Below, one piece after another: positions 1,458-3,580 of a stretch of DNA of 64,000 bases. The position numbers and the translations under genes are program-made. The notes below the pieces were generated by a model. It had not been told where the DNA came from. It did no database searches and saw nothing but the letters and a program-made list of their open reading frames with translations. The stretch's first letter is position 1; every line of letters begins with the position of its first letter. The DNA is from Cetobacterium sp. NK01 (GTDB lineage Bacteria; Fusobacteriota; Fusobacteriia; Fusobacteriales; Fusobacteriaceae): contig NZ_JANIBO010000001.1 in the NCBI RefSeq assembly GCF_024506395.1, positions 620,001 to 684,000 on the forward strand, written 5' to 3'.

Positions 1458-3380
1458 TTAATTATTGTAATTTTTATTTTTTAATTCTCTTAAATAAACC
1501 TCTTCTGAATTATACCCCATTCTTTTAGCCATTAAGTTCATAACTGCTATTTCAACCATAGCTGCGGCATTTCTTCCTGAAGATATATATAGTTTTATTT
1601 TAGGAATCTCATTTCCTAATAAAACTTCTGTGGATTCTTGATAATCCATAGCAGTTAGATAATCTTCACTTTTCAACTCTTGAAGCTCAATTATCATATC
1701 TAACCTTTTACTTATTCTTACTGCTCCTACACCGTACAAAGCTTTAACATCTATTATTCCTAATCCACGTATTTCCATAAAATAAGGTAATTTTGAAGCT
1801 CGACCTGTGATATCTCCTATTACACCTTTTTCAAAACGAACAGAATCATCTGCTATTAGTCTATGACCTCTATGAATAAGCTCTAATGCTGTTTCACTTT
1901 TTCCTATACCGCTTTTTCCTGTTAATAAAACACCAAAACCATATAACTCTACAAAAACTCCATGGACTGATGTTGAAGGTGCAAAATAATTCTCTAAATA
2001 TGCACTAAATGTCGCAACTACATGACTAGGTCTATCTAATTTTGTTTCTAATAATATTATTTTTTTCTCAATAATTCTATTTAAAAAATAATCTGGAATA
2101 TTTTTTACCCCAGAAATTATTATAGCAGGAAAATCTTCATCTAAATATCTTTCTAAATTTCGTTCTCTATTTTCAATAGGAATGCTCTCTAAGTATTTAA
2201 ACTCTGTATCCGTAAATAACTGTAAACCTTTATATCCATCTTCTCCATACATATCAAAATATCCTGTTAAAGCTAATGATGGTCTATAAACACCTGTTGT
2301 TGTAATATATTTATTATCTAAAAATTCTTCTCCATTTAATACATTTAAATTAAATCTTGTTTTTATATATCTAACTGGCATACTCGTTTTATCGTTCACA
2401 ATTAGTCCTCGCTTTTTATTTTCTCTATTTTCTTCAATTAATTTTTTAGATTCTCTCCAAAAATATTCTGCTGAGTTTACTCCTGTTTTTTTCAGTCTAT
2501 AATTTATAGCTGCAGTTTCTATTATAATTGCTAAATTTCTTCCTTTTCTAACTGGTAAAGTCACTTTAGGTATTTTAAACCCTAGGAATTCCTCATAAAC
2601 CTCATCTAATCCTAAACGATCATAAAATTTTTTCTCATCCCATTTTTCAAGTTCAATTAGTAAAGTAATTTTTTTCTTTTTTCTTGTACTTTTTATTCCA
2701 AAATGAGTTGTCACATCTATATCATTTCCATCTTTTCCAAAAAGATAAAAATGACTATCTCCGCTTTCTTTATCTGCTGTATTAGATCCTAATATAAATC
2801 TATTTGCTATATTTTGAACCTTTAGTCTTGTATCTGTTATAAACTTATGACCTCTTTCTAAAAGCTCTACTGTTGCACCTAATCTAGCATCTTCATAACC
2901 TTTTAATAAAATTCCAACACCATATATATCCAATAATATACAATTATCAATTATAATTTCTTCTGCTAGAACTTTTTGTAGATAAAATTTTGCATTTCTT
3001 ATAAATTCAATAGTTTTATTATTTGATTTCAACACTGGTTTTTTATACTTTTTAGCTATTTCAACAATTTCATCTACTATATAGTTTTCTACAGTCACTA
3101 TTAATGTTGGAAATGGATAGCTTAAATATTTTTCAAGAATTTCTTTTCTTTTATTTTTTTCTATATGTGAAAGATATCCAACTTCTTTTCTTCCTAAAAC
3201 GTTTACATTACTATGTAGCTCTTCTCCCTCTGTAAAAAAACCGCTTAATTCATATCCAACTCTATAAACACTTTGAGTTTTAATCTCTCTCTCCATATTT
3301 ACATCTAAAAGTGGTACAAGTCCTAATACATTAGCTAAATCTTTAACTTTTGGAAATTTTCTTGCTATAATTTTTTCCAT
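1458..3380 (-). CDS. hprK: HPr kinase/phosphorylase, tandem two-copy form
   Basis: HprK phosphorylates Ser46 of HPr in the sugar phosphotransferase system and controls carbon catabolite repression. This protein has 640 residues, about twice the usual 310, because it carries two HprK units in tandem (about 1-325 and 326-640). The second unit has an intact P-loop GKSGIGKSE (488-496) and the family signature MEIRGLGIIDV (535-545). In the first unit the P-loop position reads KGYEDARLG (160-168) and cannot bind nucleotide in the usual way. However, the first unit keeps WDEKKFYDRLG (247-257) and PVRKGRNLA (276-284), which are degraded in the second. The start is ATG with GAGGAG upstream. It follows the small gene ending at 3392 and precedes yitT. 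Confidence 0.9.
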   Translation of the reverse strand: MEKIIARKFPKVKDLANVLGLVPLLDVNMEREIKTQSVYRVGYELSGFFTEGEELHSNVNVLGRKEVGYLSHIEKNKRKEILEKYLSYPFPTLIVTVENYIVDEIVEIAKKYKKPVLKSNNKTIEFIRNAKFYLQKVLAEEIIIDNCILLDIYGVGILLKGYEDARLGATVELLERGHKFITDTRLKVQNIANRFILGSNTADKESGDSHFYLFGKDGNDIDVTTHFGIKSTRKKKKITLLIELEKWDEKKFYDRLGLDEVYEEFLGFKIPKVTLPVRKGRNLAIIIETAAINYRLKKTGVNSAEYFWRESKKLIEENRENKKRGLIVNDKTSMPVRYIKTRFNLNVLNGEEFLDNKYITTTGVYRPSLALTGYFDMYGEDGYKGLQLFTDTEFKYLESIPIENRERNLERYLDEDFPAIIISGVKNIPDYFLNRIIEKKIILLETKLDRPSHVVATFSAYLENYFAPSTSVHGVFVELYGFGVLLTGKSGIGKSETALELIHRGHRLIADDSVRFEKGVIGDITGRASKLPYFMEIRGLGIIDVKALYGVGAVRISKRLDMIIELQELKSEDYLTAMDYQESTEVLLGNEIPKIKLYISSGRNAAAMVEIAVMNLMAKRMGYNSEEVYLRELKNKNYNN

Positions 3381-3391
3381 TTTAAGCTCCT

Positions 3392-3580
3392 CTAGTTGCT
3401 TTTATAAAACTCTTTATCTCTCTCTTTATAAGTTTTATCAATTTTTTCTAAAAATAAATTTTTTTGATTTTCTCTTTTTAAATATTCATTTTTTAATATA
3501 TTAATATGCTCATATAAAAAATATCCTATTATAAATGTTACTATAATAGTGAATATTTTAAAAAAAATATTACTTTTCAT
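3392..3580 (-). CDS. Small single-pass membrane protein, function unknown
   Basis: A 62-aa protein with one N-terminal transmembrane segment (about residues 7-24) followed by a charged, probably coiled-coil stretch rich in Lys and Glu. Its ATG lies inside the last codons of folC (11-bp overlap), with a GAGGAAG ribosome-binding site inside folC, and it ends 11 bp before hprK. The fold outline (short N-terminus, one TM, short coil) recalls FtsL/DivIC-type division proteins, but no diagnostic motif is present, so no function is assigned. The conserved packing between two real genes supports it being translated. Confidence 0.6.
   Translation of the reverse strand: MKSNIFFKIFTIIVTFIIGYFLYEHINILKNEYLKRENQKNLFLEKIDKTYKERDKEFYKSN

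What the first reader, a model, noticed from the sequence alone, without database searches (positions are those of the whole stretch)
1458..3380. Double-length HPr kinase with complementary loss of active-site parts
The protein holds two HprK units. The second keeps the P-loop GKSGIGKSE and MEIRGLGIIDV but has lost the WD..K.YDRLG segment. The first keeps WDEKKFYDRLG and PVRKGRNLA but has KGYEDARLG in place of the P-loop. HprK normally works as a homohexamer in which neighbouring subunits contribute to the active site. A fused pair with split duties would be an obligate pseudo-heterodimer, with one half perhaps only structural or regulatory.
Basis: partly seen in the sequence, partly recalled or inferred. 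Interest (0 to 1): 0.72.

Follow-up and report, generated by a model that had tools for sequence, protein, structure and literature searches.

The report
Fused kinase with split active site
In a whole bacterial phylum the enzyme that switches sugar use on and off is two fused copies of an ordinary kinase, each of which has lost the half of the active site that the other keeps, so the two copies probably have to complete one another to work.

Summary
ORF 1458-3380 (-) of a Cetobacterium-like genome (Fusobacteriota) encodes 640 aa: two complete HPr kinase/phosphorylase (HprK) units in tandem. The tandem itself is known: a 2008 paper reports it for F. nucleatum. The split is the new part. In 65 of 65 tandems read, unit 1 keeps Arg245, Leu246, Gly247 and Pro266 (L. 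casei numbering) and has no P-loop. In 65 of 65, unit 2 keeps His140, Lys161-Ser162-Glu163, Asp178-Asp179, Glu204 and Arg206; Arg245 is gone in 61 of 65 and Pro266 in 65 of 65. Published structures put these two sets on opposite subunits of one shared active site, so the fused copies have divided the site along the natural subunit interface. One relative has lost both N-terminal domains and kept only the two complementary catalytic pieces. The fusion looks alive: 68 of 68 HprK-bearing genomes whose SIMG-type HPr was read keep the target Ser46. In one family HprK was lost at least twice, and Ser46 became Asn in 20 of 21 HprK-less genomes. Best reading: one live, asymmetric HPr Ser46 kinase/phosphorylase site per fused pair, unit 1 donating in trans to unit 2. 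Biochemistry and domain placement are untested.

The parts
1458..3380 (-). Tandem HPr kinase/phosphorylase, 640 aa, two HprK units in one chain
2406..3380 (-). Unit 1 (residues 1-325): HPrK_N + HPrK_C-like domain without a P-loop; proposed in-trans donor
   Evidence: AF2 model of this half vs 1knx Z 19.1, 1kkm Z 13.2
2877..2903 (-). KGYEDARLG in place of the P-loop in unit 1 (residues 160-168)
2610..2642 (-). WDEKKFYDRLG, the Arg245 loop, kept in unit 1 (residues 247-257)
   Evidence: R245, L246, G247 each 65 of 65
2529..2555 (-). PVRKGRNLA, the K3 loop, kept in unit 1 (residues 276-284)
   Evidence: P266 65 of 65 in unit 1, 0 of 65 in unit 2
1458..2405 (-). Unit 2 (residues 326-640): HPrK_N + HPrK_C with a complete P-loop; proposed nucleotide-binding, catalytic half
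1962..1964 (-). His140 equivalent (H473), unit 2 only
   Evidence: 65 of 65 in unit 2, 0 of 65 in unit 1
1893..1919 (-). P-loop GKSGIGKSE in unit 2 (residues 488-496)
   Evidence: G160, K161, S162, E163 each 65 of 65 in unit 2
1845..1850 (-). Asp178-Asp179 equivalents (D511 D512) in unit 2
   Evidence: each 65 of 65
1746..1778 (-). MEIRGLGIIDV, HprK signature with Glu204 and Arg206, in unit 2 (residues 535-545)
   Evidence: E204, R206, G207, G209 each 65 of 65
1644..1676 (-). Degenerate counterpart of the Arg245 loop in unit 2 (residues 569-579, LKSEDYLTAMD)
   Evidence: Arg245 in only 4 of 65 unit-2 copies
1569..1589 (-). YISSGRN, partly degenerate K3 loop of unit 2 (residues 598-604)
3392..3580 (-). 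62-aa ORF with a hydrophobic N-terminus just upstream of hprK, overlapping the end of folC
   Evidence: translation; no function tested

Best explanation
The gene encodes the cell's HPr Ser46 kinase/phosphorylase as an asymmetric fused pair. In ordinary HprK every active site is built from two subunits: one gives the nucleotide side (His140, P-loop, Asp179, Glu204), the neighbour gives the Arg245 loop, the K3 loop and the C-terminal helix. After an internal duplication in an ancestor of the Fusobacteriota the two fused copies decayed in complementary ways. Unit 2 became the nucleotide-binding, acid/base half. Unit 1 became the donor that reaches into the site of unit 2 with Arg245 and the K3 loop. 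Each fused pair then has one live composite site and one dead site, so a trimer of fused chains (the equivalent of the homohexamer) would have three live sites instead of six. Shown: the tandem, the complementary conservation, its age, the link to HPr Ser46. From the literature: which residues face each other across the interface. Inferred: that unit 1 serves unit 2, within one chain or between chains, and that both kinase and phosphorylase activity survive.
For: (1) Alignment of 65 unit-1, 65 unit-2 and 58 single-unit HprKs: of 61 columns at least 80% conserved in single units, 24 are kept only by unit 2, 12 only by unit 1, 19 by both, 6 by neither; in the catalytic domain all 19 unit-2-only columns lie at 140-210 and all 10 unit-1-only columns at 217-294. 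Of 29 columns at least 90% conserved, 15 are kept by both, 10 by unit 2 only, 4 by unit 1 only, none lost in both. (2) PMC9399212 (passages) lists the substrate site as Arg245, Thr294, Leu301, Ile305 of one subunit plus His140', Ser157', Asp179', Arg180', Ile198', Leu199', Glu204' of the other, and says an adjacent subunit's K3 loop fills the place next to the P-loop: the tandem is split along that line. (3) G067, an orthologue by gene order (mtnN upstream), is 269 aa without N-terminal domains; its first unit keeps NWNKEEHFDRLG and PIKKGRD and has no P-loop, its second keeps GKSGVGKSE, ADD and MEVRGLGI and lacks the donor loops. (4) HPr: Ser46 in 68 of 68 HprK-bearing genomes read, Asn46 in 20 of 21 HprK-less genomes with that HPr type; the GatB tree needs two HprK losses and two changes at residue 46. 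(5) Units 1 and 2 are each one clade in two trees.
Against: No structure or assay. The AF2 tandem model has pTM 0.49, so it neither supports nor contradicts the pairing. Four unit-2 copies (G030, G032, G033, G036, one genus) have Arg at the 245 column; unit-1 copies keep Asp178 in 56 of 65, and by chance or descent Asp179 in 8-9 and Glu204 in 11 of 65. Gly270-Arg271-Asn272 of the K3 loop persist in both units. Leu301, named among the donor-side residues, is not kept by unit 1 (Ser/Thr). Complementarity by counts alone is not significant: with 10 unit-1 losses and 4 unit-2 losses among 29 columns, no double loss is expected by chance about one time in six (my hand calculation); the case rests on where the losses fall. 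The compact form is one draft genome (88% complete). In the first tree the unit-2 clade fell among single units rather than beside unit 1.
Confidence: 0.8

Rival explanations
1. Unit 1 is a pseudokinase that only scaffolds or regulates unit 2; unit 2 does all catalysis by itself and has found a substitute for Arg245.
For: Unit 1 has no P-loop in 65 of 65. Zea mays PDRP is a precedent: two like domains, one active site, the other proposed allosteric (PMC9138534, passages).
Against: A mere scaffold should not keep exactly the donor-side catalytic residues: Arg245, Leu246, Gly247, Pro266 are each 65 of 65, and the YDRLG loop is less variable in unit 1 (0.79 bits) than in single-unit HprKs (2.08 bits). 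The stripped-down G067 protein lost nearly everything else in unit 1 but kept these loops.
Confidence: 0.1
2. The fused protein no longer acts on HPr; it is a diverged paralogue with another substrate, or is decaying.
For: 29 of 98 genomes of the phylum have no HprK at all, so the system is dispensable in some lineages.
Against: It is the only HprK in its own genome. HPr Ser46 is kept in 68 of 68 genomes with HprK and is Asn in 20 of 21 without it, through two independent losses. Catalytic residues of unit 2 are invariant.
Confidence: 0.06
3. Unit 1 and unit 2 come from two different HprK genes that were fused, not from an internal duplication.
For: In the 62-row tree the unit-2 clade sits among single-unit HprKs and away from unit 1.
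Against: That tree has long branches joined. After leaving out the longest rows, units 1 and 2 together are one side of a branch, support 89, not starred. This concerns origin only and leaves the mechanism unchanged.
Confidence: 0.2
4. Assembly or annotation artefact.
For: None.
Against: Same architecture in 64 full-length tandem frames from separate genomes, with matching gene neighbours.
Confidence: 0.01

Closest known systems
HPr kinase/phosphorylase (HprK/P), homohexameric, e.g. L. casei, S. xylosus, M. pneumoniae, B. subtilis
   Same: Same domains (Pfam HPrK_N + HPrK_C, TIGR00679), same residues taken over both units, same partner (HPr with Ser46)
   Different: Two units in one chain, each missing the active-site side that the other keeps; in the single-unit enzyme every subunit carries both sides
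Tandem HprK of Fusobacterium nucleatum, mentioned in PMC2405797 (2008)
   Same: Same tandem fusion; the same family in a relative
   Different: The passages I saw say only that two HPrK domains lie in tandem; they do not mention loss of active-site parts (the words 'active site' and 'Ser46' do not occur in its main text)
PDRP / PpsR regulatory protein (Zea mays)
   Same: Bifunctional Ser/Thr kinase and phosphorylase with two like domains and one active site, structurally comparable with HprK (passage in PMC9138534)
   Different: Different family; its N-terminal domain is proposed to be allosteric, not a donor of catalytic residues
Fused pseudo-heterodimers with one live and one dead site, e.g. 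mammalian adenylyl cyclase C1/C2 (recalled, from no call)
   Same: Gene duplication turned a symmetric two-site dimer into an asymmetric chain with one live site
   Different: Unrelated fold and chemistry

Membership tests
HPr(Ser) kinase/phosphorylase (TIGR00679; PF02603 + PF07475) | Curated profile score over cut-off | tested here: met
   TIGR00679 505.6 vs 240; PF07475 310.9 vs 33.3; PF02603 164.3 vs 24
HPr(Ser) kinase/phosphorylase (TIGR00679; PF02603 + PF07475) | P-loop with Lys161-Ser162, Asp179, Glu204/Arg206 | tested here: met
   Met by unit 2 in 65 of 65; not met by unit 1
HPr(Ser) kinase/phosphorylase (TIGR00679; PF02603 + PF07475) | Arg245 loop and K3 loop (PVRxGRN) | tested here: met
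   Met by unit 1 in 65 of 65 for R245, P266, G270, R271; unit 2 keeps only GRN
HPr(Ser) kinase/phosphorylase (TIGR00679; PF02603 + PF07475) | HprK fold in both halves | tested here: met
   Unit 2 in the tandem model vs 1ko7 Z 25.0, 282 aligned, rmsd 3.0; unit 1 model vs 1knx Z 19.1, 273 aligned, rmsd 7.8, and 1kkm Z 13.2, 142 aligned, rmsd 2.9
HPr(Ser) kinase/phosphorylase (TIGR00679; PF02603 + PF07475) | Substrate HPr with Ser46 in the same genome | tested here: met
   SIMG-type HPr with Ser46 in the window's genome and in 68 of 68 HprK-bearing genomes read
HPr(Ser) kinase/phosphorylase (TIGR00679; PF02603 + PF07475) | One unit per chain (usual, not in the profile definition) | tested here: not met
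   Two units per chain in 64 full-length frames; 54 of 54 relatives read from outside the phylum have one P-loop unit per frame
HPr(Ser) kinase/phosphorylase (TIGR00679; PF02603 + PF07475) | Hexameric assembly (32 symmetry) | not testable with these tools
   AF2 single chain, pTM 0.49
HPr(Ser) kinase/phosphorylase (TIGR00679; PF02603 + PF07475) | ATP-dependent phosphorylation and Pi-dependent dephosphorylation of HPr Ser46 | not testable with these tools
   Only indirect evidence: HPr Ser46/HprK co-occurrence
HprK-related kinase A / B (TIGR04352, TIGR04355) | Curated profile score over cut-off 200 | tested here: not met
   16.1 and 25.7 bits

The most novel reading that the evidence does not exclude
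The Fusobacteriota HprK is an obligate, asymmetric split enzyme: exactly one live composite site per fused pair, with the kinase half and the donor (Arg245/K3, dephosphorylation) half on separate units that evolution can tune independently. Because an odd ring of three cannot alternate two kinds of unit, the split implies that HprK's composite site lies across the two-fold, not the three-fold, interface. The 269-aa G067 form would be the smallest natural HprK, reduced to two complementary half-sites on the way to loss of the system.
Probability: 0.6. Interest if true: 0.72.

Novelty: new variant of a known kind. Interest (0 to 1): 0.64.

Why it matters
HprK is the switch of carbon catabolite repression and an antibacterial target, but in a homohexamer every mutation hits all six sites, so the roles of the two sides of the shared site cannot be separated. 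Here evolution separated them in one chain, across a phylum that includes F. nucleatum. Each side can be mutated alone, one live site can be studied without its mirror image, and the trans-donation model for Arg245 and the K3 loop becomes directly testable. The paired loss of HprK and HPr Ser46 gives a second, independent readout of function.

Tried and rejected
AF2 of the whole tandem with 11 sequences gave good folds per domain but pTM 0.49, and no coordinates are handed out, so the distance between the unit-1 Arg255 loop and the unit-2 P-loop could not be measured. AF2 of unit 1 alone has mean pLDDT 70 and is fit only for a fold comparison. A plain contingency test of complementary loss is not significant by counts (computed by hand); I rely on where the losses fall. 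The first tree did not join units 1 and 2; the second, built after I left out the longest and some near-duplicate rows, did, support 89 without a star, so internal duplication is likely, not shown. The primary HprK structure papers and a review are not held; the interface residues come from PMC9399212, which builds on 1KKM. Whether that interface is two-fold or three-fold I could not read anywhere; [quoted passage not shown] The plasmid search listed 15 records, one of them a Fusobacterium; I did not read these sequences. Literature searches bearing on the split: (with Fusobacterium terms) returned only PMC2405797 as relevant; the library lacks most subscription journals. Of the papers, I saw passages only: PMC2405797, PMC9399212, PMC8004850, PMC11204831, PMC9138534.

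Full report
What is there. The window lies in a Cetobacterium-like genome: its nearest named relatives are Cetobacterium records of 65-94% protein identity. ORF 1458-3380 (-) encodes 640 aa that hold two complete HprK units, each an HPrK_N followed by an HPrK_C domain. Both halves match solved HprK structures by sequence on their own. AF2 models of both halves match them by fold: unit 2 against 1ko7 Z 25.0 over 282 residues; unit 1 against 1knx Z 19.1 over 273 and against 1kkm Z 13.2 over 142 residues, rmsd 2.9. It is the only HprK in its genome.

How widespread. Of 98 genomes of the phylum, 69 have HprK: 64 as a full-length tandem in one frame, 4 cut by contig ends or broken (G012, G056, G060, G061), and 1 compact form (G067). 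All 61 genomes of the window's own family have it; in family f4 only 5 of 33 do; the other 4 families have one genome each, 3 with it and 1 (G001) without. Outside the phylum, 105 of the 193 other genomes searched had a match; I read 54 of these 105 and all 54 are single-unit. Gene order mtnN-(folC)-hprK-(yitT) is shared widely, including f4 genomes with the tandem, G067 (mtnN) and the most distant genome G097 (mtnN), which supports orthology. The tandem itself is in print: PMC2405797 says F. [quoted passage not shown]

The split. I aligned 65 unit-1 copies, 65 unit-2 copies and 58 single-unit HprKs and numbered columns by L. casei HprK. Unit 1: Arg245, Leu246, Gly247, Pro266, Gly270 and Arg271 in 65 of 65, Trp237 in 64 of 65; His140, Ser162 and Gly160 in 0 of 65. 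Unit 2: His140, Gly155, Ser157, Gly160, Lys161, Ser162, Glu163, Asp178, Asp179, Glu204, Arg206, Gly207 and Gly209 in 65 of 65; Arg245 in 4 of 65; Pro266 in 0 of 65. Of 61 columns conserved in at least 80% of single units, 24 survive only in unit 2, 12 only in unit 1, 19 in both, 6 in neither. At 90% conservation there are 29 columns and none is lost in both. Within the catalytic domain the change-over is clean: every unit-2-only column lies at 140-210 and every unit-1-only column at 217-294. The YDRLG loop is less variable in unit 1 than in single-unit enzymes (mean 0.79 against 2.08 bits), and the signature region is less variable in unit 2 than in them (0.37 against 1.31 bits).

Why this split makes sense. 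In L. casei HprK each HPr touches two subunits. PMC9399212 (passages) gives the substrate site as Arg245, Thr294, Leu301 and Ile305 of one subunit and His140', Ser157', Asp179', Arg180', Ile198', Leu199' and Glu204' of the other, and notes that the K3 loop (266-271) of an adjacent subunit sits beside the P-loop. The fused copies have lost opposite sides of exactly this site. Unit 1 also keeps Ile305 (65 of 65) and Ala294, the commonest residue of single units there (52 of 65), while unit 2 loses both; Leu301 is not kept by unit 1, which is against a perfect match.

The stripped-down relative. G067 (f4; 1.2 Mb draft, 88% complete) has at the same locus a 269-aa ORF without any HPrK_N domain recognisable in the sequence. 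Its first piece has NWNKEEHFDRLG and PIKKGRD but no P-loop; its second has SVHGV, GKSGVGKSE, IADD and MEVRGLGI but no Arg245 loop and no PVRxGRN. Pfam's HPrK_C profile is matched in the order 98-169, then 6-118. Reduction kept the two complementary halves and little else.

Is it alive? The window's genome has two HPr proteins. One, in a cluster with a PtsI-like gene, carries the HprK target motif (GKSIMGLM); the other has TSLLKLLS. In the phylum, 68 of the 69 HprK-bearing genomes gave the first type (G060, incomplete, did not), and Ser46 is present in 68 of 68. Of the 28 HprK-less genomes of f4, 21 gave an HPr that I took as this type, and residue 46 is Asn in 20 of 21; the exception, G081, is a divergent copy whose orthology is doubtful; in the other 7 none was found. 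A GatB tree of f4 with six genomes from outside it shows that HprK was lost at least twice, on either side of the branches that hold G087-G090 and G067, and that the change at residue 46 also needs two steps. GatB is one marker, and the G067 sequence in it is partial. A protein whose substrate keeps its target serine only where the protein is present, through two separate losses, is very likely the Ser46 kinase, and G067 behaves like the full-length tandems.

Origin. Units 1 and 2 are each one clade with G097 inside, so the fusion predates the spread of the phylum's sampled families. With long rows left out the two clades join (support 89, not starred); in the fuller tree they do not.

How it most likely works. 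Unit 2 binds ATP or Pi/PPi, carries the acid/base Asp179 and Mg-binding Ser162/Glu204; unit 1 reaches over with the Arg245 loop and K3 loop and its C-terminal helix to hold HPr and complete both reactions. The mirror site, made of the dead P-loop of unit 1 and the dead donor loops of unit 2, is lost. [quoted passage not shown] xylosus pairs its N-terminal domains in the dimer of the asymmetric unit (PMC8004850). A ring of three cannot alternate two kinds of unit, so the split argues for a composite site across a two-fold axis; this step is inference. Alternatives in which unit 1 only regulates do not explain why precisely its catalytic donor residues are invariant.

Verdict. Real, conserved through the phylum, functionally coherent, and as far as my searches reach not described beyond the bare tandem. 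It is a new variant of a known enzyme, not a new kind of system.

Noticed in passing
f4 genomes of the phylum, e.g. L235-L247, L255-L264: HPr Ser46 changed to Asn in 20 of 21 HprK-less genomes with the SIMG-type HPr, in two independent HprK-loss lineages, while much of the rest of the motif (KNVMGLM and the like) is kept; part of the evidence here, but worth a study of its own.
   Followed up: yes
L073:2112-2921: 269-aa compact HprK without N-terminal domains, possibly the smallest natural HprK; one draft genome only.
   Followed up: partly
window 3392-3580 (-): 62-aa ORF with a hydrophobic N-terminus between folC and hprK; G067 has at the same place a 199-aa ORF with a hydrophobic stretch near its N-terminus (L073:1495-2094).
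   Followed up: no
L111 (G056:C33:10000-13500): Tandem hprK interrupted by stop codons in a 62% complete draft genome; decay or assembly error.
   Followed up: no
L134 (G148:C1:6680700-6682300): A genome outside the phylum with two hprK matches (C1:149163 and C1:6681091); the one read has Glu at the Arg245 column, so an unlinked donor/acceptor pair might exist elsewhere.
   Followed up: no
L112 (G030:C1:104500-107200): Weak extra match to the HPrK_C profile (below cut-off) in two genomes of one genus (G030, G032); probably another P-loop kinase.
   Followed up: no
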